DNA of 64,000 nucleotides, taken from positions 18,679 to 82,678 of the forward strand of contig JAFYSK010000050.1 in NCBI GenBank assembly GCA_017559385.1. The letters are read 5' to 3'. Shown piece by piece: positions 30,434 through 41,657 of the stretch; positions within the stretch are counted from its first letter, which is position 1; every line of letters begins with the position of its first letter. Below the pieces are notes generated by a model, which did not search any database, was not told the DNA's origin, and was given only the letters and a program-made list of their open reading frames with translations. Both the position numbers and the translations under genes were made by a program. This DNA comes from Paludibacteraceae bacterium (lineage in GTDB: Bacteria; Bacteroidota; Bacteroidia; Bacteroidales; Paludibacteraceae).

Positions 30434-30521
30434 GGTGTATATGTTTTGTAATTTTTTGCTAAAATTGTCTTCAGTAGCTACGAGTTTCCCCGTTGTATCC
30501 CCCTTACCTGCCACCTGTTTG

Positions 30522-30576
30522 CATAGGAACTTCATAGGAACTTCATAGGGACTTCATAGGGACTTCATAGGAACTT
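30522..30576. repeat. 11-bp tandem array (5 units) upstream of the GH20 gene
   Basis: CATAGGAACTT, CATAGGAACTT, CATAGGGACTT, CATAGGGACTT, CATAGGAACTT in a row, then a decayed unit CACCGAATCTT. It lies in the 197-base gap between the GH20 gene and the small protein gene. Confidence 0.9.
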
Positions 30577-30630
30577 CACCGAATCTTTACCGTAGGATCA
30601 CCGAGAGAACTAGGACACATCGCCCAATCT

Positions 30631-30990
30631 TTATTGCGGCTTACTCAATTCGTGTCGAATATAATCCCACAATCTTTCGGGCACTGCTGGTTTTCCATTT
30701 GCTTGTGGCATGCGTTGATGTTTGCTGGCTTCTCGTTTTGCGGCGAGATGTTTAGCCGTCCATTCGGCTTTTTGTGCCTCATCACGCATGATAGCCGAAG
30801 CCTCTTTGCATAGGGAGGTAAACGCCTTCACGGCTGGGCGTTCTGCCATTTCTTTTTTCTGTTTCTTGGTGTATTGTGGTTTCCTGCAATATGCAGCATA
30901 CCCAGTCCGTCCTGGGATAGGGCGCAACCAATGTTCCTCATCGATACTCCCACCGATACTTTCTAAAAAAGATGCTACATGTACAATCAT
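30631..30990 (-). CDS. Small basic protein, unknown function, 119 aa
   Basis: The protein has no signal peptide or membrane segment. It begins MIVHVASFLESIGGSIDEEHWLRPIPGRTGYAAYCRKPQY and continues with a long charged helix (KKQKKEMAERPAVKAFTSLCKEASAIMRDEAQKAEWTAKHLAAKREASKHQRM). The conserved-looking Trp/Arg/Gly/Tyr N-terminus and helical tail suggest a cytoplasmic, possibly nucleic-acid-contacting protein; this is only an impression. It has its own promoter. The reading frame shows normal coding character and no better alternative on the other strand. Confidence 0.6.
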   Translation of the reverse strand: MIVHVASFLESIGGSIDEEHWLRPIPGRTGYAAYCRKPQYTKKQKKEMAERPAVKAFTSLCKEASAIMRDEAQKAEWTAKHLAAKREASKHQRMPQANGKPAVPERLWDYIRHELSKPQ

Positions 30991-31068
30991 AGTTAATTAA
31001 TTTTAAGTAAGTTACAAATTCTAATCTATCTTGATTCTCGGCTCTTTGTTCTTGGCTCCAATATGCTG

Positions 31069-31076
31069 CAAAGGTA
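31069..31076 (-). promoter_or_regulatory. -7 box for the small basic protein
   Basis: The minus strand reads TACCTTTG (complement of CAAAGGTA), about 80 bases before the start. Confidence 0.6.
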
Positions 31077-31117
31077 CAAAAATTTTCTCACATTTCCAAA
31101 TTTTCCAACACTTTTTT

Positions 31118-31207
31118 ATTGCCACCTTGCCGGCTTGCCACCTGTTTCCTAAAATACACACGTACGCGCAGGCGTGGATTTTTACATTTAGCTGTCAAGG
31201 TGGCAAT
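31118..31207. repeat. 90-bp element with 12-bp inverted ends
   Basis: ATTGCCACCTTG (31118-31129) and CAAGGTGGCAAT (31196-31207) are perfect inverted copies. The left end continues as TTGCCACC, TTGCCGGC, TTGCCACC (8-base register). The middle holds CACGTACGCGCAGGCGTG, itself partly palindromic. No coding sequence is inside, so it looks like a small non-autonomous repeat. Confidence 0.6.
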
Positions 31208-31306
31208 TCTTTGTTATTATTCCCGAATCATATTCAGGTATTCTCTCCTAACCCTAAACAGTTTCCTTGCCTTTAAACCTTAAACTCTAAACTTTCAACT
31301 AAAAAA

Positions 31307-31338
31307 TTTGCACATCCGCAAATTTTATTGTACCTTTG
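31307..31338 (+). promoter_or_regulatory. Bacteroidota-type promoter for the surface-protein locus
   Basis: TTTG at 31307-31310, 20-base gap, TACCTTTG at 31331-31338: a full match. The first long gene starts 334 bases downstream, so the leader is very long. Confidence 0.8.
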
Positions 31339-31344
31339 CACCGT

Positions 31345-31671
31345 GAACCTGCGCTGGGGGTGTCGGCACATCAGCGGTGAAGGGATAGCAGACATAATTA
31401 AAAGGCGTTTATTGGCGCTTGTTTTGGTCAATAGAAAACTGGAAACTTTCTCACACCCGAAACAAGAGAGCGATAAATGCCCCTTGGTGTGTTTAATTCG
31501 TTGTATCCTACAACGATGAACATATCGGCGTGGGCATTCATTGTTTATTCTTGTGTGAAGGTTTTTCCAGTACCTCTATTGAAAGGATAAGCAAAAAGAG
31601 GTTCCACGCTTTTTCTATATTTATACCAACGGGGCGTTTGGAGCCAACTTCCCTCAAAACGTTAAATAACA
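31345..31671 (+). promoter_or_regulatory. Long structured 5' leader (candidate regulatory RNA)
   Basis: The leader folds by eye into nested helices. CGCTG/CAGCG encloses GTG-TCGG-CAC (about 31353-31377). A long stem pairs GGCGTTTA (31404-31411) with TAAATGCC (31474-31481), and inside it CGCTTGTTT pairs with AAACA...AGCG around an internal loop. CACACC pairs with GGTGTG (an alternative partner), CGTTGTA-TCC-TACAACG forms a hairpin (31499-31515), and GCGTGG pairs with CCACGC enclosing CCTCT/AGAGG (about 31528-31602). A 24-codon upstream frame overlaps the last part. Competing pairings suggest a switch or attenuator for the adhesin locus; this is inference. Confidence 0.6.
31516..31590 (+). CDS. 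Possible leader peptide, 24 aa
   Basis: An ATG frame codes MNISAWAFIVYSCVKVFPVP followed by LLKG and a stop. It is hydrophobic, starts one base after the CGTTGTA/TACAACG hairpin and spans the GCGTGG/CCACGC stem, so its translation would affect folding. It is too short to be sure it is real. Confidence 0.3.
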   Translation: MNISAWAFIVYSCVKVFPVPLLKG

Positions 31672-32811
31672 ATGAAAAAAAATCTATTTCTGGGACTCTT
31701 AGTTTGCTCTGTGTTCATGTTCTCAAGTTGCGAGAACGATGGATTAGGGAAAGGCTTAACTGGCTATTACACAGACTTGAGTGCAGTTGCTAAGGCTTCG
31801 GATTTTAACGAGATTAATGAGGCTATTAAAAAGAATGAGTTATTGTATGTGTTCGATCATCGTTTGGGTGAAGATGATTATTACTATGCAACACGTGATT
31901 TATTCTTGAGAGACGGTATGTGGTGGGATTGCGAGCATCATCACGGACGATTTAGATTTTATATTAAAAGTACTCTTTATCCTGTTATTCATATTATTGA
32001 TAAGAACACTATAGCAATGAAAGGTTCATCCTGTTCTTTATACCAAGAGGGACGTGGAGATGGAGATGTTGTTTATAGATTCTATGCCGGACCTATTTTT
32101 GGAAATATGGAATATGTAGGTTATGATTGGAGTTATTATACATACGTGTACATTGCTGACAACAAAATAGCAGTTTCAAATGGTGATATTTATACTATTG
32201 TAGATGGTAGTTTGATAAAGGATGGTAGTTCTACTATCTTGAGCAAATACGATCCAGACAAATTACATGGTTCCGCAGGTTCTAGTGATAAAAATCCATG
32301 TAATCAAGATAATGTTGAAAACGGGAATAGTTCAAACGATAACAACCAAGCAGAAAAAGAAATTCAGAAGAAAATATCTCAAAACGTTGTAGTTAATGTG
32401 TCGGCATATAAAAATTATAGTTGGGATATATCAATCACTACCTCATTAGAAAGTGTATATTCCAATAAAACAATCAAGTATGGAATTTTATGTGGATATA
32501 ATAACCGTCCTCAGTACTACTATTGGAAGTATTTTACATTGCAAGGGAAGTCTATAAAAGAAACTGTACCTTTGTTTGTTGATGGTACGGGTAGCCCCTA
32601 TGCTGAACACTATTTATATTGGTGTAGTTTAGTAGCATTGGCAGAAAAAACATCTTTAACAGAAAGTGAGCAAATGTTGAAAGTTTCATGCATTAGATAC
32701 TGTAATGAGGTGGAAGATGATGCTCTAGATGAATATTGGGGACAAGTGTTTGTGGAAATAGATGGTGAAAAATATATTGTTAAAGAATACGGCAATAAAA
32801 AACAAGAATAA
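31672..32811 (+). CDS. Hypothetical lipoprotein of the surface locus, 379 aa
   Basis: A lipoprotein signal (KNLFLGLLVCSVFMFSSCEND) precedes a mature protein rich in Tyr, Trp and Asp with a beta-like pattern (RFRFYIKSTLYPVIHIIDKNTIAM, YDWSYYTYVYIADNKIAVSNGDIYTIVDGSLI). A linker rich in Asn, Ser and Gln around residues 200-225 separates it from a second beta-rich domain (NVVVNVSAYKNYSWDISITTSLESVYS, then IKYGILCGYNNRPQYYY), perhaps fibronectin-like. I do not recognise either domain. It follows the long leader and precedes the LRR gene by 22 bases, so it belongs to that operon. The gene is AT-rich. Confidence 0.7.
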   Translation: MKKNLFLGLLVCSVFMFSSCENDGLGKGLTGYYTDLSAVAKASDFNEINEAIKKNELLYVFDHRLGEDDYYYATRDLFLRDGMWWDCEHHHGRFRFYIKSTLYPVIHIIDKNTIAMKGSSCSLYQEGRGDGDVVYRFYAGPIFGNMEYVGYDWSYYTYVYIADNKIAVSNGDIYTIVDGSLIKDGSSTILSKYDPDKLHGSAGSSDKNPCNQDNVENGNSSNDNNQAEKEIQKKISQNVVVNVSAYKNYSWDISITTSLESVYSNKTIKYGILCGYNNRPQYYYWKYFTLQGKSIKETVPLFVDGTGSPYAEHYLYWCSLVALAEKTSLTESEQMLKVSCIRYCNEVEDDALDEYWGQVFVEIDGEKYIVKEYGNKKQE

Positions 32812-32833
32812 TTCATAATTTATCCTATCAATT

Positions 32834-35800
32834 ATGAAAAAGATTATTTTTATACTTTGTACCCTTTGCTTCGCAGTTAGCGTATTAGCTCACGATTTTG
32901 AGGTAGATGGGATATACTACAATATCCTCGAAGGGAATAATGTTGAAGTAACTTCTGGTTCTTCAAAATACACTGGAACTATTGCGATACCAGAGGCTAT
33001 TACATATAATGGGGATAATTATAGTGTGATAAGTATTGGAGAGAAGGCTTTTGAGGATTGCGATGTAGGACTTGACTCTGTTATAATCCCTAATAGCGTA
33101 ACTAGTATCGGAACTAAAGCCTTTTATGATTGTATGTTTCTTCGGTATATCTCCGTTCCTAATAGTGTAACACATATTGGAGACTATGCGTTCTATGGGT
33201 GCATGTTTGCTTCTATAAACATTCCCGAGAATATTACAAAGATTGGAAATTATGTTTTTTATGCATGTGCTTCTATCAATTCAATTACTATTCCAAACAC
33301 AGTAACTTCAATTGGGGATTATGCGTTTTATCAATGTAAAACACCTTCACATCTTATAATTCCTAATAGCGTAACAGATATTGGAGAGAGTGCTTTTCAA
33401 TATTGTTCAGGTTTGACTTCAATTGCTATTGGAAGTGGTGTAACAGAAATTAGACCAAGTACTTTTAAAGGATGCAAAGCTCTTACATCAATAACCATTC
33501 CTAATACAGTTGTGAGTATCGGAGATTGGGCATTTTCAGAATGTATAGTATTGGAATATGTCACGATTCCTAATAGCGTAACAAACATAGGATATGGGGT
33601 ATTTTCTAGTTGTTCTGCAATAAATACTGTAGTTTGGAATGTTAAAAATTGCGCTGATTTTTCATCAGAAAACTATAGTCCATTTCGTGATTCCCAAGAA
33701 ACAATAACTTCATTCACTTTCGGTAATAGTGTTGAACATATTCCTGATTACTTATGTTATGGTATGAGCAATCTCACTTCTGTTGAAATAGGCAATAATG
33801 TTAAAAGTATAGGATACAAAGTATTCTATGGATGTTCTGCCCTGTCCTCAATAACCATTCCAGATAATGTAACAAGTGTGGGAGATAAAACTTTTTATGA
33901 CTGCTCTTCTCTTAAATCAGTAAATCTTGGAAATGGAATAACCCATTTAGGTGTTAGTCTTTTTGGATATTGTACAGCACTTACTTCAATCTCTATCCCT
34001 AATAATGTAACGAGTATAAAATCTGCTTTCTACCAATGTTCTTCACTCAAAACAGTAGAATGGAACGCTAAAAACTGCCATGATTTTGATGATTCACCAT
34101 TCTATTATTCTCGCCAAACGATAACTTCTTTTACTTTTAGCAATACTGTTGAATATATCCCAGCATTATTATGTCGTAGTCTGAGTAGTTTAACTTCTGT
34201 TACTATTCCTAATAGTGTAGTAGCTATCGGTTCAAAAGCATTTTATAATTGTGGATTTAAATCTATTACTATTGGCAGTAACGTATTGAGCATTGGACAA
34301 GATGCATTCTCTAGTTGTTCTGCGCTCAAAACGGTTAAATGGAACGCAAAGAACTGCTCTGACTTTTCTGATATACCAAGTAGTCCTTTTGGTAATCTTA
34401 GTGAACAAATTACCTCGTTCACTTTTGGTTATGGTGTAGAACATGTTCCCGCTTATTTGTGTTGTGGAATGAGTGGTTTAACGTATCTTACTATTCCTAA
34501 TAGCGTAAAAACCATTGGGCTTCATGCATTTTCCAGTTGTGAAGGTATTACTTCCATCTCTATTCCAAGTAGCGTAACTAGTATTGGAAATTATGCATTT
34601 TATATGTGTCGTGGGATTTCTAGTCTTTCCATAGGAAGCAATGTAGAGACCATTGGGGATTATGCATTCCAATATTGTTCTATTACTTCTCTTTCTATTC
34701 CAAACAGTGTAACAACTATTGGTGAATACGCTTTTGATTGGTGTTCAAAACTTTCGTCTGTTACTATCGGAAGTGGCGTGAGAAGTATTGGAAATTTAGC
34801 ATTCTGGCATACTAATATCCAAAATGTCGTATGGAATGCAAGGCATTATGATGACATTATGGATAAAGTAAACCCCTTCACAGATTGGAATCTACTTAAG
34901 ATAACCTCATTTACGTTTGGAGAAGCAGTAGAACATATTCCTGCTTACATATGTTACCAACTGATGAACTTATCCTCTGTTACCATAGGAAGCAATGTCA
35001 CAAGTATAGGAGAAGGAGCTTTTTCAAAATGTACTAACATCGAAAAAGTTGTTTGGAATGCAAAGAATCTTCCTGACTTTGCAGATGCATCAGAGGCTCC
35101 TTTCTATGATAGTCAAGAAACAATTACTTCGTTTACTTTTGGCACTACAGTGGAGCACATACCTGCTTATTTGTGTTCTGACATGAGCGGATTGATTTCT
35201 GTTACTATTGGAGATGGCGTTAGTAGTATTGGAGAATCTGCTTTTTATAACTGCTATTCTCTTAGTTATTTGAAGTTAGGAAATACGATCAAGACTATTG
35301 GTGATTATGCGTTTGCAGATTGTAACTCTTTAGCAACTCTGACTATCCCAAATAGCGTGAAGAGCATAGAGTACGCAGCTTTTCAAGGATGCTCTTCTCT
35401 TACATCTATTACTGTTCCATCAGGTAACATAGCAAGTTATGCTTTTTCATATTGCAGCGATCTCACTTCTGTATCTATTGGAAGCGGTGTAACTAATATC
35501 GGCACGGATGCATTTGGTTATTGCAATGACCTTGCATCCATCAGGGTAGCAAATTCTAATGCCTATTACGATAGTAGGGAGTATTGTAATGCAATTATAG
35601 AAACAGCCACCAATACCTTGATTGCTGGTTGCTACAATACAATCATACCTTACGGTGTAACAGCTATTGGTGAATACGCCTTTTCCGCATGTGATAATCT
35701 AACTTCTATTGAAATTCCCAATAGCGTAACAACAATTGGGAACATGGCTTTTAGCGGCTGCTCTAATCTCACCTCAATAACTATTCCAAATAGTGTAAAA

Positions 35801-36235
35801 AGTATTGGTAGTAGAGCTTTTAGAGGATGCTTAACAAAAGTTTATGTAAAAGCAACAACCCCTCCAGAGATTGCAGACAACACATTCTCCACAAGTCCTA
35901 TTTGCTACGTTCCTTGCGGAACAATAGATGCTTATAGCACAACAAACTGGATGAGCAGTTGTAGCGAGATCATAGAAGAGCAACTATACCAAATATATCT
36001 TACTGCTGCTCCACATGATTATGGTACAGTGAAAGTTGTTTCACGCCCAGATTGTGATAATGCAATTATTTCTGCAACCCCTAACGACGGATATACGTTT
36101 GTCATATGGAGTGATGGCAATACACAAGCTACACGACACATTGCACTCAACCAAGATGTTTCTCTAAAGGCATATTTTGCACAAAAGGGATACACTATCC
36201 ATATCTATCAAGATTGTACAGTTACCGTTGAATAA
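32834..36235 (+). CDS. BspA-like leucine-rich repeat surface protein, 1133 aa
   Basis: After a signal peptide (MKKIIFILCTLCFAVSVLAHD) comes a short domain (FEVDGIYYNILEGNNVEVT) and about 35 BspA-type LRRs of the form LTSITIPNSVTSIGDYAFYGC. Five longer modules interrupt them at about residues 265, 408, 500, 664 and 738, each with WNAKNC, TSFTFG and VEHIPAYLC. From about 1053 an InlB-like repeat follows (LTAAPHDYGTVKV, NDGYTFVIWSDGN), then a final half repeat YTIHIYQDCTVTVE. No T9SS tail is present on this protein. BspA proteins bind fibronectin, fibrinogen or other bacteria. It is cotranscribed with the next genes (8-base gap). The gene is AT-rich. Confidence 0.9.
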   Translation: MKKIIFILCTLCFAVSVLAHDFEVDGIYYNILEGNNVEVTSGSSKYTGTIAIPEAITYNGDNYSVISIGEKAFEDCDVGLDSVIIPNSVTSIGTKAFYDCMFLRYISVPNSVTHIGDYAFYGCMFASINIPENITKIGNYVFYACASINSITIPNTVTSIGDYAFYQCKTPSHLIIPNSVTDIGESAFQYCSGLTSIAIGSGVTEIRPSTFKGCKALTSITIPNTVVSIGDWAFSECIVLEYVTIPNSVTNIGYGVFSSCSAINTVVWNVKNCADFSSENYSPFRDSQETITSFTFGNSVEHIPDYLCYGMSNLTSVEIGNNVKSIGYKVFYGCSALSSITIPDNVTSVGDKTFYDCSSLKSVNLGNGITHLGVSLFGYCTALTSISIPNNVTSIKSAFYQCSSLKTVEWNAKNCHDFDDSPFYYSRQTITSFTFSNTVEYIPALLCRSLSSLTSVTIPNSVVAIGSKAFYNCGFKSITIGSNVLSIGQDAFSSCSALKTVKWNAKNCSDFSDIPSSPFGNLSEQITSFTFGYGVEHVPAYLCCGMSGLTYLTIPNSVKTIGLHAFSSCEGITSISIPSSVTSIGNYAFYMCRGISSLSIGSNVETIGDYAFQYCSITSLSIPNSVTTIGEYAFDWCSKLSSVTIGSGVRSIGNLAFWHTNIQNVVWNARHYDDIMDKVNPFTDWNLLKITSFTFGEAVEHIPAYICYQLMNLSSVTIGSNVTSIGEGAFSKCTNIEKVVWNAKNLPDFADASEAPFYDSQETITSFTFGTTVEHIPAYLCSDMSGLISVTIGDGVSSIGESAFYNCYSLSYLKLGNTIKTIGDYAFADCNSLATLTIPNSVKSIEYAAFQGCSSLTSITVPSGNIASYAFSYCSDLTSVSIGSGVTNIGTDAFGYCNDLASIRVANSNAYYDSREYCNAIIETATNTLIAGCYNTIIPYGVTAIGEYAFSACDNLTSIEIPNSVTTIGNMAFSGCSNLTSITIPNSVKSIGSRAFRGCLTKVYVKATTPPEIADNTFSTSPICYVPCGTIDAYSTTNWMSSCSEIIEEQLYQIYLTAAPHDYGTVKVVSRPDCDNAIISATPNDGYTFVIWSDGNTQATRHIALNQDVSLKAYFAQKGYTIHIYQDCTVTVE

Positions 36236-36243
36236 TTCATCAT

Positions 36244-36792
36244 ATGAAAAATAAGATAAGATATTTATTCTTGCTTCTTTCCATTCCATTGCATCTGGTG
36301 GCTAAGGATTATACGGTGAGGGTCACAACTACTACATGTGGCACCATACAGTCCTATACCGTACCAGAAGGTGCAGAAATGGTTCTTGTAGCACATCCAC
36401 GCGATGGATATATCTTCAGTCAATGGTCGGATGGCAATACGGAGAATCCAAGAATGATTACAATCACATCAGATGTTGCATATTTAGCTCAATTTGTAAA
36501 ATCTGACCCTGCTGCCCCAGAAGAATCTTACTTGATTATTGCAAAAAATCAAGGGTGTGATGAAACCTTTGAGGGGTATTATCCAGCAGGTACAAAAATT
36601 CAACTTTTTGCCCAAGCTGAAGAATGCAACTACTTCTGGCGTTGGTCTGATGGTAATACAGATAACCCACGAACTGTATTTGTTGATAAAAATATGACTT
36701 ATACAGCCGAATTTAAAACAGAACAATTCATTATCACCGTAGAATCAGATAACGAAACACAAGGTTCTGTACACGTAGAAATCCAACAATAA
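36244..36792 (+). CDS. Secreted protein of InlB-like repeats, 182 aa
   Basis: A signal peptide (MKNKIRYLFLLLSIPLHLVAKD) is followed by two repeats, each with a Gly-rich strand and a W-S-D-G-N-T-x-N-P-R turn: VLVAHPRDGYIFSQWSDGNT (about 40) and LFAQAEECNYFWRWSDGNT (about 121). The protein stops after ITVESDNETQGSVHVEIQQ, which is the first half of another repeat. It has no lipobox, membrane segment or sorting tail, so it must rely on partners to stay at the surface. It lies between the LRR gene and the next repeat protein. Confidence 0.82.
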   Translation: MKNKIRYLFLLLSIPLHLVAKDYTVRVTTTTCGTIQSYTVPEGAEMVLVAHPRDGYIFSQWSDGNTENPRMITITSDVAYLAQFVKSDPAAPEESYLIIAKNQGCDETFEGYYPAGTKIQLFAQAEECNYFWRWSDGNTDNPRTVFVDKNMTYTAEFKTEQFIITVESDNETQGSVHVEIQQ

Positions 36793-36825
36793 CTAGTTAA
36801 ATAACAAAACAAAATTTATACAACA

Positions 36826-37926
36826 ATGAAAAAAAATCTATCATTTGCGATGATGCTCTTTGCCTTCGCATTCACAGCGCAAGCTGCCAATGAAGTTACT
36901 GCAGATTGCGGTAGCCAAGTGACTATCACTGCCACTCCAAAAGAGGGTCATCACTTTGTTCGTTGGAACGACAACAACACTGACAACCCACGTATCGTGG
37001 ACGTAACAGCAGATGCTACCTACACTGCGTATTTTGCCCCTAACAAGCACACCATCACTTGGCTTAACTGGGACAATAGCGAACTCTACAAAGCAGAGTT
37101 TGACTATGGTACAACCCCTGTATATGGCGGTGCTGTACCTACTAAACCAGCGGATGCACAATATACCTACACGTTCGATAGTTGGTCACCAAATATCCAT
37201 CCTGTACAAGGCGATGATGTATATACAGCAGTATTCTCTAAAACTGTCAATCAATATACCGTTACCTTCAAAAACTGGGATGGTGCGGTACTCCAATCCA
37301 CCAGCGTTGCCTATGGCGATATGCCTAGCTATACTGGCGCTATACCTACCAAGCCAACTACCGATCAATACACTTACACTTTCTCGGGTTGGGATACAGA
37401 AATTGCAAGCGTAACCGGCGACGTAGTTTATACGGCACAATTCGATGCTATAGTGAATAAGTACACCATCACCTTCAATAACTGGGACGGTACTACACTC
37501 GCTACCTACGAGGTTGAGTATGGTCAAACACCAGTATATGCAGGCGAATTGCCAACCAAAACATCTACAGATGAATATACTTATACTTTCTCAGGTTGGA
37601 CACCTGCTATCGTTCCTGTAACAGGCGATGCTACTTACACTGCAACCTTCTCTACCGATGTCAATAGCTACACCATCACGCTCAATGCTGAGAATGGAAC
37701 AGTAACAGGTGCAGGTACATACACCTATGGTACATCGGCTAACATCACCGCTATACCTGCGGATTGCTACCACTTCGTACAATGGAGCGATGGCGACACC
37801 AATGCATCACGTACCATCGTAGTGACAGTTGATATCACCCTCACAGCAATCTTCGAGATTAATACCTACACCATCAAGGTTGAGTCTGCGGACGAGACAC
37901 AGGGTAGCGTAAGCGTATCTAAGTAA
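36826..37926 (+). CDS. Secreted Listeria-Bacteroides/InlB repeat protein, 366 aa
   Basis: After the signal (MKKNLSFAMMLFAFAFTAQA) it begins directly with the second half of an InlB-like repeat (CGSQVTITATPKEGHHFVRW, N-x-NPR). Three copies of the roughly 70-residue Listeria-Bacteroides (Flg_new) repeat follow, each with YTVTFKNWDG, P-x-Y-x-G-x-x-PTKP and YTFSGW. One complete InlB-like repeat (LNAENGTVTGAG, YHFVQWSDGDT) comes next and the protein ends with a half repeat, YTIKVESADETQGSVSVSK. Such repeats make stalks or adhesive beads on surface proteins. It is less AT-rich than the LRR gene. No anchor is seen. Confidence 0.85.
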   Translation: MKKNLSFAMMLFAFAFTAQAANEVTADCGSQVTITATPKEGHHFVRWNDNNTDNPRIVDVTADATYTAYFAPNKHTITWLNWDNSELYKAEFDYGTTPVYGGAVPTKPADAQYTYTFDSWSPNIHPVQGDDVYTAVFSKTVNQYTVTFKNWDGAVLQSTSVAYGDMPSYTGAIPTKPTTDQYTYTFSGWDTEIASVTGDVVYTAQFDAIVNKYTITFNNWDGTTLATYEVEYGQTPVYAGELPTKTSTDEYTYTFSGWTPAIVPVTGDATYTATFSTDVNSYTITLNAENGTVTGAGTYTYGTSANITAIPADCYHFVQWSDGDTNASRTIVVTVDITLTAIFEINTYTIKVESADETQGSVSVSK

Positions 37927-38717
37927 TGAAGACAAAATCAATCATACTAATCACCTGCCTTATGCTCTTCTGCTCACCTTTGTGGGCGGAAGAACATAAG
38001 GTGGCTTGTGGTTCGTGGATTGAGATTGCTGCACACCCGCTAGAGGACTACCACTTCGTGAAGTGGAACGATGGCAATCAAGATTCCATTCGCCAGATAC
38101 AGGTGCACGAAGATGCTACCTATATCGCCTATTTCGCTGCCAACTGCGAGGAGTATGCCAATTGGCCTATAATCTCCCTCTACGACTGGCTGCTGATGGT
38201 GGATGTGCGTGCTATCAACGAGATGGGCTACTACTTTGCGCCAGAGGATGTCAGCTGGTACCGCGTAGTAGGAGAACCAGACGATATGCACAACCAATTC
38301 CCATTGGATGATCAACTCGTGGAAGAAGACAACTACTACCTCACCATTGACCAAAGCCTCAAGGGTTCAGGTACCTATTACGCGGTCATTGATGTGAGCG
38401 ACTCCCAAGGCATGCTATGCGATGGACTCATGCGCTCGGTGTTGGTATCCTATGCGGGTAGCCAACAACCTGCCAAAGTCGCACTCATCCCGAATGCGGT
38501 AGTCATGGGACAGACTATGCAACTCAAAGGACTCAATCCTGACGAGAATAGCGATATCTTCATCTATAGCACCACAGGACAACTCATTGAGCAGTTTGTC
38601 TCTACAGGAGAAAGCACCATCCAACTAGATGCTGCACAAGTGGCGGGATGTTACCAAGTGGTAGTCAAATCGCCATCCATCACGCAAATACTGCGATATA
38701 TTGTCAACAATAAATAA
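37926..38717 (+). CDS. Secreted protein with half InlB repeat and T9SS sorting domain, 263 aa
   Basis: The ATG overlaps the previous stop (TAATG). After the signal (MKTKSIILITCLMLFCSPLWAEE) it starts with a second-half repeat (CGSWIEIAAHPLEDYHFVKW, then WNDGN). A central domain (YDWLLMVDVRAINEMGYYFAPEDVSWYRVVGEPDD, SGTYYAVIDVSD) follows. The last 80 residues are a type A T9SS C-terminal domain: PNAVVMGQTMQLKG, IYSTTGQLIEQF and GCYQVVVKS. This tail targets the protein across the outer membrane and to A-LPS anchoring. It is the only protein of the cluster with the tail. Confidence 0.85.
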   Translation: MKTKSIILITCLMLFCSPLWAEEHKVACGSWIEIAAHPLEDYHFVKWNDGNQDSIRQIQVHEDATYIAYFAANCEEYANWPIISLYDWLLMVDVRAINEMGYYFAPEDVSWYRVVGEPDDMHNQFPLDDQLVEEDNYYLTIDQSLKGSGTYYAVIDVSDSQGMLCDGLMRSVLVSYAGSQQPAKVALIPNAVVMGQTMQLKGLNPDENSDIFIYSTTGQLIEQFVSTGESTIQLDAAQVAGCYQVVVKSPSITQILRYIVNNK

Positions 38718-38724
38718 TGAACTT

Positions 38725-39609
38725 ATGAGGACATTTATCAATAAATTTCTTTGTCTCTTATTGATGACAATATGTTGCACGCAAGTGTATGCGGCTAGAA
38801 GATATTATGTTTATCCTAGCAACGCTCATATCCTTCGTGTAGGATTATCTGGAGGCGGAATATATAATCTGACACCAACTGACTGCACGATGAAGAGTGA
38901 AGTAGGAGCTGCAGGAGCTATTGCACTAGATTATGTTTTCTACAAGCCACTCCGCTCTATTGACTTGGGACTTAGAACTGGTATAGATCTGGGCTATTTA
39001 TATTCCCCATATCACGCACAGTTTGAACATCAGTATAGCAATGTGGATTATCTAGGTAATCAGATGGACTACACCACCTCGGGTATGGTAGATATTGCGC
39101 AAAATCAACTCTATGCAAGCGTGCCACTGATGTTTGCATTGCGCAGCAATGGGTTTGTATGCAATCTTGGAGTACGTTTGCAAATGCCTTTCTACCAAAT
39201 AGGTAAACAGCAACTCTCTAATCCTCTCGTGCAGGCGTATTATCCGAAATATGATGTCACGGTAACCAACGAACTCATCACAGGAATTGTGGCAGATAAT
39301 CAACTATCTACTCCATTAGAATTTCCTTCTATCTTGTTGGAATGTCATGCTGCAATGGAAATAGGATACGAACATGAGATCAGGAATACGAATAGCGCAA
39401 TAGGTGTGCTGGCTTATTTCAATATGGGATTTTGGAACTCTTTGCCCAAGGCTACAGACTCACCAATCATCCAAGTCGCACCTATTATGGATAAGAACAA
39501 TCCAGTTCCTACAGTTACGGTCAACAATGCATATAATGCGCTATTGACTTCATATATTCCAATGCAGTTTGGTCTAAAAGTATATTATGCATTTCATCTT
39601 ACGAAATGA
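38725..39609 (+). CDS. Outer-membrane beta-barrel protein, 294 aa
   Basis: A signal peptide (FINKFLCLLLMTICCTQVYA) precedes a protein with alternating hydrophobic strands (HILRVGLSGGGIYNL, SIDLGLRTGIDLGYLYSP, LYASVPLMFALRSNGFVCNLGVRLQMPFY) and a final strand, FGLKVYYAFHLTK, that ends in a basic residue after aromatic ones. This fits a small barrel of the outer-membrane porin-like class. It begins 7 bases after the T9SS-tailed gene and ends the operon with a strong terminator, so it may serve as a membrane partner. The family is not recognised. Confidence 0.75.
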   Translation: MRTFINKFLCLLLMTICCTQVYAARRYYVYPSNAHILRVGLSGGGIYNLTPTDCTMKSEVGAAGAIALDYVFYKPLRSIDLGLRTGIDLGYLYSPYHAQFEHQYSNVDYLGNQMDYTTSGMVDIAQNQLYASVPLMFALRSNGFVCNLGVRLQMPFYQIGKQQLSNPLVQAYYPKYDVTVTNELITGIVADNQLSTPLEFPSILLECHAAMEIGYEHEIRNTNSAIGVLAYFNMGFWNSLPKATDSPIIQVAPIMDKNNPVPTVTVNNAYNALLTSYIPMQFGLKVYYAFHLTK

Positions 39610-39637
39610 TGTACTTATAGAATAGTCTGAATATTCA

Positions 39638-39679
39638 GCTCACCTCGCAAGTCAATTGATTTGCGAGGTGAGCTTTTTA
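39638..39679 (+). terminator. Strong rho-independent terminator of the surface locus
   Basis: AGCTCACCTCGCAA pairs with TTGCGAGGTGAGCT (14 pairs), with TCAATTGA in the loop, followed by TTTTAT. Confidence 0.9.
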
Positions 39680-39720
39680 TATTCTTCTTGCTCGAATTCA
39701 AGTGCTCCTTCTGGAAAATA

Positions 39721-39748
39721 AAAACTGAAAACTGAAAATGGAAAGCGG
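39721..39748. repeat. 7-bp tandem array
   Basis: AAAACTG, AAAACTG, AAAATGG, AAAGCGG in register, in the 836-base gene-free gap before the NamZ-family gene. Confidence 0.6.
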
Positions 39749-39804
39749 TAGAAACTCACGTGAATATAAAAACAACATGTGTCGGAAGTAACGAAAATGT
39801 ATGT

Positions 39805-39867
39805 GCGGTTATTGCGGTTTTAGCGGTTTTGAAAACCGCAATAACCGCTAAAACCGCAGAAACCGCT
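39805..39867. repeat. Mirrored 9-bp array, 63 bp (element 1)
   Basis: Three 9-base units (GCGGTTATT, GCGGTTTTA, GCGGTTTTG) are followed by four units in inverse orientation (AAAACCGCA, ATAACCGCT, AAAACCGCA, GAAACCGCT). The whole is seven units of 9 bases and can fold into a hairpin. It is followed by TCGCTAT, as is element 2. Confidence 0.85.
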
Positions 39868-39930
39868 CGCTATATTCAAAGAATATATTCATTGATTTTC
39901 AGGGAGAAAGCATCTTGAAATCAATTTCTG

Positions 39931-39973
39931 CGGACTTTTGAGAATGTCCTAGAGTGTATTCTCAGAAAGTCCG
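39931..39973. repeat. Long inverted repeat
   Basis: CGGACTTTTGAGAAT (39931-39945) pairs with ATTCTCAGAAAGTCCG (39958-39973) with one bulged base and a 12-base loop. No T-run follows, so it is not a standard terminator. A weaker hairpin (TTGATTT/AAATCAA) lies just upstream at about 39892-39924. Confidence 0.65.
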
Positions 39974-40037
39974 TGGGAATATCAATATTTTGGTCAAGTA
40001 CCTGATTATCAATCATACTAGATATAAAAGATAGATG

Positions 40038-40100
40038 CCGTAAATACCGTATTTCCCGTATTGCGGATAATCAATTACGGGATTTACGGGAAATACGGTC
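40038..40100. repeat. Mirrored 9-bp array, 63 bp (element 2)
   Basis: CCGTAAATA, CCGTATTTC, CCGTATTGC, a 9-base spacer, then ATTACGGGA, TTTACGGGA, AATACGGTC. The ends give a perfect 15-pair stem (ACCGTATTTCCCGTA). It is followed by GCTAT. The same design, length and flank as element 1 but a different sequence. Confidence 0.85.
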
Positions 40101-40143
40101 GCTATCGTTATCTCTCCCAGTTACTATTCATAACGTATAAGGA

Positions 40144-40242
40144 TGTGATTTAGATCACATAGTTATCACATATTAATCACATAGTAATATCATAGTAGAT
40201 ATAGCAAAGGTATAGTATGAACCCGTTATGAACCCGTAGTTG
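40144..40242. repeat. Degenerate 11-bp tandem array upstream of the NamZ-family gene
   Basis: Nine 11-base units: TGTGATTTAGA, TCACATAGTTA, TCACATATTAA, TCACATAGTAA, several divergent units, then two of ACCCGTTATGA / ACCCGTAGTTG type. It parallels the array at 11703-11823 unit for unit in its first four units, including the TGTGA-N6-TCACA start. A short GTTTAGT 7-bp run follows. Confidence 0.8.
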
Positions 40243-40406
40243 GTAGTTTAGTGTTTAGTGAATGCATTGCGGACGACTGTTTAGAGTTTAAGAATAAACT
40301 ATAAACAATGAGTGTTAGGTGAAGCGAGTTTTGCTAAATTGGCTCAAAAAAGTGCTAGTTTTGCATTTTTTGGCTCAAATAAAGCCGATAATCCAAATAT
40401 TTTTTG

Positions 40407-40414
40407 TAATTTTG
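40407..40414 (+). promoter_or_regulatory. -7 box for the NamZ-family gene
   Basis: TAATTTTG, matching TAnnTTTG, 31 bases before the start of the gene. Confidence 0.6.
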
Positions 40415-40445
40415 CACCAGTTTTCCAGCGAAAAGTTAAAATACC

Positions 40446-41657
40446 ATGAAAAGAGTTGTTTCATTTTTGATCATAATGCTTTTAGCCGTAGGTACTGCAT
40501 GCGCAGAGCGTGTAGTGCTGGGTGCTGAGCAGACGAAAGAATATTTGCCTCTGCTAAAAGGCAAGCGTGTGGCGCTACTAAGCAATCATACGGGACTGAT
40601 TATTCAAGCGAAAGGCGATAAGGCGATGAGGCAACAAGGCGATACTATTCATACATTGGATTGGTTGCTCGGGCATGGCATACAAGTGACTGCTATTTTC
40701 TCGCCAGAGCATGGTTTTCGTGGCACAGCGCGTGAGGGTGAGAGAGTGGCCAGCAGTGTGGATGAGAAGACAGGCATACCTATTCTATCGCTCTACGACG
40801 GAGATAGCAAGTACCCATCCAAGGAGTCTATGGCGATGTTTGATGTGCTCGTGACCGATATTCAGGATGTAGGTTTGCGTTTCTATACCTACTACATCAC
40901 CATGTACCGCTTGATGGATGTTTGCGCCCAATATGGCAAGCAGTTTGTGGTGTTTGACCGCCCCAACCCTAACGGCTGGTATGTGGACGGACCAATATTG
41001 GATATGAAGCACAAGTCGGGCGTGGGAGCATTGCCTATTCCTGTGGTGCATGGCATGACCTTGGGTGAGTTGGCGCTGATGATCAACGGCGAAGGCTGGT
41101 TGAAGGACGGGGCTAAAGTAGATTTGAAGGTAGTGCCTTGTAAGAATTATACCCACCAGACATTGTACCGTTTGCCTGTGGCACCATCGCCAAATTTGCG
41201 CAATATGTTGGCGATATACTTGTACCCTGCGGTTTGCTTGTTTGAGGCAACGCCTGTGTCGTTGGGTAGAGGAACGGATAAGCCCTTCTTGTGCTATGGC
41301 CACCCTAACTTCAACGCTCCACGCACAGAGGCTAGTGTATATGGTCCTGCGATTACTTTTACCCCTAATCAATCCACTCAGAAAGGTCGTGTGTGCGATG
41401 GTGTAGACTTGAGCGGTATGAGCGAAGAAGAAGCGCGCAAGGTAGGCTTCTCGCTTAGGTATCTATTGGATGCGTATAAGCATCTGAATATGGATAACTA
41501 TTTCTTCCGTTCGTTCTTTGAGTTGTTAGTGGGACAGGATTATGTGCGCAAGATGATCAACCAAGGCAAGAGCGAGGAGGAGATTCGTGCTTGCTGGCAG
41601 GATGATGTGGCGAAGTTCAAAATCCAACGCCGACCATATCTCCTCTACGAAGAATAA
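40446..41657 (+). CDS. NamZ-family (DUF1343) exo-beta-N-acetylmuramidase-like enzyme
   Basis: This 403-residue exported protein (signal MKRVVSFLIIMLLAVGTACA) belongs to DUF1343, whose studied members (NamZ) release N-acetylmuramic acid from peptidoglycan ends. Landmarks are RVALLSNHTGLI, FSPEHGFRGTAREGE, YDGD near the first third, DIQDVGLRFYTYYITMYRLMD, FDRPNPNG, GMTLGELALMINGEGW, LFEATPVSLGRGTDKPF and SFFELLVGQDYVRKMI. A short array-coded stretch (KGDKAMRQQGD) enlarges the loop before the second motif. It sits upstream of a sodium:solute symporter, suggesting release and import of a cell-wall sugar (inference). Confidence 0.85.
   Translation: MKRVVSFLIIMLLAVGTACAERVVLGAEQTKEYLPLLKGKRVALLSNHTGLIIQAKGDKAMRQQGDTIHTLDWLLGHGIQVTAIFSPEHGFRGTAREGERVASSVDEKTGIPILSLYDGDSKYPSKESMAMFDVLVTDIQDVGLRFYTYYITMYRLMDVCAQYGKQFVVFDRPNPNGWYVDGPILDMKHKSGVGALPIPVVHGMTLGELALMINGEGWLKDGAKVDLKVVPCKNYTHQTLYRLPVAPSPNLRNMLAIYLYPAVCLFEATPVSLGRGTDKPFLCYGHPNFNAPRTEASVYGPAITFTPNQSTQKGRVCDGVDLSGMSEEEARKVGFSLRYLLDAYKHLNMDNYFFRSFFELLVGQDYVRKMINQGKSEEEIRACWQDDVAKFKIQRRPYLLYEE
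40611..40642 (+). repeat. 8-bp tandem array inside the NamZ-family gene
   Basis: AAAGGCGA, TAAGGCGA, TGAGGCAA, CAAGGCGA: four 8-base units of the same family as in GH20 and ileS, coding KGDKAMRQQGD. Confidence 0.75.

What the first reader, a model, noticed from the sequence alone, without database searches (positions are those of the whole stretch)
35995..38060. An InlB-like repeat is split in halves across consecutive secreted proteins
Seen in sequence: the repeat has a first half (Y-T-I-x-V-E-S-x-x-E-T-Q-G-S-V-x-V) and a second half (C-G-S-x-V-x-I-x-A-x-P-x-x-G-Y-x-F-x-x-W-x-D-G-N). The LRR protein, the 182-residue protein and the 366-residue protein each end with a first half. The 366-residue and 263-residue proteins each begin, right after their signal peptides, with a second half. 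Inference: neighbouring subunits could complete each other's repeat, like donor-strand exchange, giving a chain ending in the one T9SS-tailed subunit. Alternatively an ancestral large adhesin was cut into genes with added signal peptides. The idea is new to me and testable.
Basis: partly seen in the sequence, partly recalled or inferred. Interest (0 to 1): 0.78.

Follow-up and report, generated by a model that had tools for sequence, protein, structure and literature searches.

The report
Secreted proteins share split InlB repeats
In a group of uncultured gut bacteria, neighbouring genes for secreted surface proteins each carry one half of the same protein domain, so the proteins probably snap together end to end into a chain that is held on the cell by its last member.

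Summary
The split repeat is real and conserved. In the window the 182-aa and 366-aa proteins end with the first half of an InlB B-repeat. The 366-aa and 263-aa proteins begin, right after a signal peptide, with the second half. The LRR protein's end is only a weak, shortened first half. Of 178 genomes of the same genus I counted 47 with a short split anchor in a truncated list. In 48 loci of these genomes, 92 of 94 genes called as starting with a second half follow a gene that ends with a first half. The usual order is head(s), adaptor (second half ... first half), anchor (second half, own domain, T9SS sorting domain), outer-membrane barrel. Two relatives carry the anchor in one giant gene with the repeat intact. 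Joining tails to acceptors completes a repeat model built from unsplit repeats. A cysteine marks the acceptor and the donor's last repeat, which suggests a disulfide lock. Best reading: subunits complete each other's repeat, and one sorting domain serves the whole chain. Pairing itself is inferred. AlphaFold of read-through proxies gave one ordered tail and one disordered tail, without coordinates.

The parts
32834..36235 (+). Head 1: BspA-type LRR protein, 1133 aa, one InlB repeat near its end (about 36002-36187), then a weak short first-half tail (36191-36232)
   Evidence: LRR_5 756.5 bits and PF18998 28.9 bits; tail 5.4 bits
36244..36792 (+). Head 2: 182 aa, two InlB repeats
36727..36789 (+). 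Donor tail (first half) of the 182-aa protein
   Evidence: sequence
36826..37926 (+). Adaptor: 366 aa, N-terminal second half, middle repeats, last complete repeat, C-terminal first half
36892..37050 (+). Acceptor (second half) of the adaptor, with conserved Cys28 at 36907-36909
   Evidence: alone it matches repeat-model positions 23-73
37765..37767 (+). Cys314 of the adaptor's last complete repeat (CYxFxxW), proposed disulfide partner
   Evidence: the bond is inference
37867..37923 (+). Donor tail (first half) of the adaptor
   Evidence: sequence
37926..38717 (+). Anchor: 263 aa, second half, YDWLLM domain, T9SS type A-like C-terminal domain; start overlaps the adaptor stop by one base
37989..38144 (+). 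Acceptor (second half) of the anchor, Cys28 at 38007-38009
   Evidence: alone it matches repeat-model positions 24-69
38490..38705 (+). T9SS sorting domain of the anchor
   Evidence: TIGR04183 23.3 bits and 25.6 bits in the genome search; the orthologue's model matches PorZ and mirolase CTDs
38725..39609 (+). Outer-membrane beta-barrel-like protein that follows the anchor (start codon chosen by eye)
   Evidence: homologue found in 45 of 51 loci; one of five homologues hits PF13568 over its cut-off

Best explanation
The cluster encodes a multi-subunit surface chain held together by domain complementation. Each head (LRR, 182 aa and others) ends in the first beta-hairpin of an InlB B-repeat. The adaptor (366 aa) begins with the rest of a repeat (the acceptor) and ends in another hairpin (the donor). 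The anchor (263 aa) begins with an acceptor and ends in a T9SS sorting domain. All have Sec-type signal peptides (read by eye). In or beyond the periplasm, the donor hairpin of one subunit completes the acceptor of the next: head to adaptor to anchor, perhaps with repeated adaptors. A disulfide between the acceptor Cys and the Cys of the donor's last repeat may lock each joint. The anchor's sorting domain, with the neighbouring barrel, brings the chain to the surface, so heads need no sorting domain of their own. Shown: the halves, their position, their conserved order, the cysteines, the sorting domain and the unsplit relatives. Inferred: physical pairing, the disulfide, polymerisation, co-export and the adhesive role.
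Against: No complex was predicted and no contacts could be read. In the 182/366 read-through model the 182 tail is disordered (block pLDDT 48, 44, 36), while the adaptor's own tail is ordered (86, 84); this fits self-closure or a homopolymer as well as a hetero-chain. (The 182 tail was covered by 8 alignment rows and the 366 tail by 20; the ordered tail of the second model had 8 as well.) Tails of other genomes complete acceptors as well as the cognate tail does (4.61 against 4.63 bits), and 35 of 92 cognate pairs gain less than 3 bits. Some clusters have two donor-only heads before one adaptor, so donors outnumber acceptors. 15 of 92 donors have no Cys within 62 residues of the end (one of them is a mis-assigned frame, and in several the Cys of the last repeat lies just beyond). 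G431 has an adaptor with no donor gene directly upstream. G014 has a donor inside a gene and another gene order.
Confidence: 0.7

Rival explanations
1. Self-complementation: the adaptor's tail folds back onto its own N-terminal acceptor, or joins copies of the adaptor only, and heads and anchor are held by other contacts.
For: In the 182/366 read-through model the adaptor's own tail is ordered while the 182 tail is not.
Against: In the 28 loci of the first survey exactly one adaptor and one anchor per locus were called as acceptors, no head was, and none of the 28 anchors has a donor tail by the pattern (a few heads are cut by contig ends). A closed adaptor would leave head tails and anchor acceptors without a partner. 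In the two-Cys adaptors the cysteines are 78 to 434 residues apart, which is hard to match with one internal bond.
Confidence: 0.13
2. The tail is a sorting tag read by the barrel or by another factor, and its likeness to a first half is inherited from the unsplit ancestor.
For: Tails are C-terminal, short and conserved, and heads of unrelated kinds carry them (LRR, Endonuclease I).
Against: It does not explain why downstream genes begin exactly with the missing second half, nor the acceptor Cys that internal repeats mostly lack.
Confidence: 0.09
3. Relic of gene fission: a large adhesin was cut by new signal peptides and the leftover halves have no role.
For: Unsplit relatives exist.
Against: Halves keep their length, pattern and cysteines across the 47 genomes counted; unused remnants should decay.
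Confidence: 0.05
4. Assembly error or frameshift in one gene.
For: No call supports it.
Against: Signal peptides lie between the halves, and the same split is found in many separate assemblies.
Confidence: 0.01

Closest known systems
Donor-strand exchange/complementation in pili, including the Bacteroidales type V (Fim/Mfa) fimbriae
   Same: A terminal beta element of one secreted subunit is proposed to complete the fold of the next; tip, shaft and anchor roles; head-to-tail chain (Mfa4 passages, PMC4789730)
   Different: Here the fold is the InlB B-repeat, the donor is a two-stranded C-terminal hairpin, the acceptor is N-terminal, and the anchor uses a T9SS sorting domain; no pilin family was hit in the family searches
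Spectrin tetramer domain
   Same: A repeat protein whose end carries part of a repeat binds another chain whose start carries the rest, forming one repeat across two chains (PMC9082959 passages)
   Different: Helical and eukaryotic; no relationship, same principle only
T9SS adhesins with a neighbouring shuttle barrel (SprB/SprF and other type B pairs)
   Same: Surface protein with a C-terminal signal followed by a barrel gene (PMC12618676 and PMC9143113 passages)
   Different: The anchor's signal resembles type A; the four barrels tested did not hit a PorP/SprF model; SprB is described as one giant repetitive chain, not several subunits
Unsplit relatives in the same genus (G506, G559, also G006)
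   Same: Same anchor domain, sorting domain and following barrel
   Different: Repeat complete and in one gene; G006 has a List_Bact-like repeat at this place

Membership tests
InlB B-repeat (PF18998) | Profile match above curated cut-off in complete repeats | tested here: met
   28.9, 51.2 and 74.6 bits for the LRR, 182-aa and 366-aa proteins, cut-off 23.6
InlB B-repeat (PF18998) | Fold of InlB B-repeat | tested here: met
T9SS type A substrate (anchor) | C-terminal sorting domain | tested here: met
T9SS type A substrate (anchor) | Genome encodes the translocon and shuttle | tested here: met
   SprA 2677.5 bits, PorV 435.2 bits
T9SS type A substrate (anchor) | Secreted through T9SS | not testable with these tools
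   Needs an experiment
T9SS type A substrate (heads, adaptor) | C-terminal sorting domain | tested here: not met
   No TIGR04183 match at E 0.01 in the LRR, 182-aa and 366-aa proteins
Type B substrate with PorP/SprF barrel | Barrel belongs to the PorP/SprF family | tested here: not met
   No such hit for four barrels in NCBIfam (window at E 0.01; L095, L078, L071 at E 1). Pfam: OMP_b-brl_2 over cut-off for one of five barrels, a sub-cut-off DUF3575 for another
Donor-strand pili (chaperone-usher, type V) | Pilin-family domains | tested here: not met
Donor-strand pili (chaperone-usher, type V) | Fold of one subunit completed by a strand of another | tested here: inconclusive
   Indirect evidence only; ambiguous

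The most novel reading that the evidence does not exclude
A modular surface fibre in Bacteroidales in which interchangeable heads (adhesin-like LRR proteins, even an Endonuclease I protein) carry a universal half-domain plug, dock into an adaptor and an anchor that carry the socket, are locked by an intersubunit disulfide, and leave the cell through T9SS on the sorting signal of the anchor alone.
Probability: 0.4. Interest if true: 0.88.

Novelty: new variant of a known kind. Interest (0 to 1): 0.76.

Why it matters
If true, it is donor-hairpin assembly with a fold for which I found no such report, and T9SS would export multi-subunit complexes in which only one member has a signal. That would widen the set of T9SS cargo beyond proteins with their own sorting domain and would give a natural plug-and-socket for displaying proteins on Bacteroidota. 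The claim can be tested with small recombinant proteins. In the listings of ten paper searches (titles and abstract beginnings seen, empty) I saw no paper on such a split repeat; the library covers open-licence PubMed Central only.

Tried and rejected
Frameshift or local accident: rejected by conservation. A split at the LRR/182 boundary: rejected, the 182-aa protein starts with a complete repeat. Split outside the genus: in loci L098-L147 the strict pattern found no N-terminal acceptor and a loose one only three frames that I judge spurious. In L150-L177, loci, a loose pattern gave four frames that I judge spurious. Both sets are samples. Among the listed rows of a search of 393 genomes of the order (list truncated), matches from profile position 1 were only in the own genome and G419 of the same genus. 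Rfam: nothing at gathering threshold in 30500-40500. Foldseek on the second model gave no usable match for the joint, and the VIA listing was filled by the sorting domain. The PDB profile search with the adaptor alignment gave weak matches only, InlB among them at E 0.055. Partner specificity: no sign. Limits of the tests: in the tail test related species are in both halves, so the halves are not independent; the first regular expressions were written after seeing the tails; the surveys overlap in species. In one search two acceptors had no upstream ORF in the stretch (L208, L209); the two misses are a spurious short frame in L243 and a real exception in L246. One search, an earlier tally, lost several adaptors to overlapping antisense frames and was replaced. 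Before the count I dropped L246, the spurious L243 frame and duplicate pairs, and from its random C-termini the recognised donor tails.
Full report
WHAT IS THERE. The window lies on contig C59 of a 2.0-Mb draft genome. Five genes run in one direction: an LRR protein (32834-36235), a 182-aa protein (36244-36792), a 366-aa protein (36826-37926), a 263-aa protein (37926-38717) and a barrel-like protein (38725-39609). Gaps are 8, 33, -1 and 7 bases. Pfam finds the divergent InlB B-repeat (PF18998) in the first three and BspA-type LRRs in the first. TIGR04183, the T9SS sorting domain, is in the 263-aa protein. The 182-aa and 366-aa proteins end in a first half; the 366-aa and 263-aa proteins start with a second half. 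The LRR protein ends in a weak, shorter version, and the 182-aa protein starts with a complete repeat.

CONSERVATION. A search of 61 genomes matched 37, of which 35 are of the same genus. Reading eight of those loci (L051-L054, L056-L059) showed the same kind of break. A scan of one genome per species gave 77 loci, of which I take 27 (L071-L097) as orthologous clusters; they are metagenome-assembled or uncultured Bacteroidales/Paludibacteraceae, and the titles that name a source name deer, goat, yak, water buffalo or pig. In these and the window, 56 genes start with a second half after a signal peptide. All 56 follow a gene whose C-terminus is a first half: 53 by pattern, 3 by eye. In the same 27 loci the pattern hits 11 of 239 other ORFs, two of which are additional heads. 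A search of 178 genus genomes matched 154, and I counted 47 genomes with a short split anchor in the listed rows; the list was truncated.

CROSS-CHECK. From 48 loci of these 47 genomes (one, L079, taken for G560 by matching coordinates) I called 96 N-terminal acceptors with a Cys, 94 with an upstream ORF in the fetched stretch. A tail profile trained on one half of the loci and tested on the other scores 92 of 94 upstream tails at 3 bits or more and 88 at 8 or more. Of 273 background ORFs 15 reach 3 bits and 8 reach 8, and by eye those 8 are donor tails from the same clusters. The two misses are a spurious frame in L243 and one real exception, G431.

THE HALVES FIT. I built a profile from 69 unsplit repeats of loci in which I found no split cluster. 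In the eight examples printed, acceptors alone match it from position 19-24 onward. With the upstream tail in front the match starts at position 1-4 in 7 of 8; the eighth, an adaptor of L053, lost 2.3 bits. For 92 pairs the mean gain is 4.63 bits (57 of 92 gain 3 or more), for 920 shuffled tails -0.52 (22 of 920), for 920 random C-termini -0.96 (3 of 920). Tails of other genomes do as well (4.61; 275 of 460), so the joint looks generic.

UNSPLIT RELATIVES. In G506 (1783-aa frame) and G559 (1901-aa frame) the same anchor domain and sorting domain sit in one giant gene, directly after a complete repeat, and a barrel gene follows. Where split acceptors have C these have Y. G006 has a fused gene with another repeat type there. 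Which state is older was not tested.

CYSTEINES. Counting from three residues before the acceptor Cys, 26 of 28 adaptors have exactly two cysteines: one in the acceptor and one in the last complete repeat; the other two have three and four. Before the aromatic residue of the last half-repeat, Cys stands in 55 of 55 matches found among 92 donors, against 9 of 160 earlier half-repeats; 15 of 92 donors have no Cys within 62 residues of the end. At the acceptor place, internal second halves have Cys in 5 of 79. Acceptors were selected with Cys in that call; a scan without that demand called 93, of which 7 lack it, and I judge these 7 spurious or complete repeats. For LRR heads the nearby Cys is part of a motif that recurs in the same proteins and says little. 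An intersubunit disulfide is the simplest reading, and is inference. Intermolecular disulfides between envelope proteins are described as rare, but are known in Bacteroidota (PMC12635249, passages).

HOW IT LIKELY WORKS. Heads are varied: of seven scanned, two have LRR_5, one is an Endonuclease I (166.5 bits, L064), two have only InlB repeats and two have no Pfam hit at E 0.001. They share the donor tail. Adaptors have an acceptor and a donor; anchors have an acceptor and a sorting signal. The genome has SprA and PorV. A reporter with a signal peptide but no sorting domain is the negative control for secretion in F. johnsoniae (PMC12618676, passages), so heads and adaptor should need a carrier; co-export is inference. 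A homologue of the barrel is found in 45 of 51 loci. Reading its coordinates, it starts within about 200 bases of the anchor's end in 42 of the 45 and lies upstream of the cluster in L216, L217 and L220. This recalls substrate-shuttle pairs, though the barrels tested hit no PorP/SprF model.

EXCEPTIONS. Two donor-only heads precede one adaptor in the window (one weak), L052, L064, L073 and L074. G014 has the donor inside a gene, before a C-terminal domain, and the short anchor comes first. Some anchors end in a short module instead of the T9SS domain.

VERDICT. Complementation between subunits is the best explanation (0.7), unproven at the physical level.

Noticed in passing
L216 3611-4252, L217 6853-7494, L059 8071-8715; also ends of long ORFs in L066-L069: Many secreted proteins and some anchors end in a short module like ILRNGQIFILRGDKVYTLQGQEI; for the two anchors tested (L064, L059) no sorting-domain model hit it. 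It may be another sorting signal.
   Followed up: no
L064 4895-7603 (minus strand): A head protein that is an Endonuclease I (PF04231, 166.5 bits) with List_Bact repeats and a donor tail.
   Followed up: partly
L060 9094-10987: Variant cluster: short anchor first, then a gene with N-terminal acceptor, internal donor hairpin and a further C-terminal domain.
   Followed up: partly
L210 and L211 (G498, G499): Two anchors and an additional adaptor within about 5 kb, suggesting cluster duplication.
   Followed up: no
window 31672-32811: Lipoprotein-like gene upstream of the LRR protein, no Pfam or NCBIfam hit at E 0.01.
   Followed up: no
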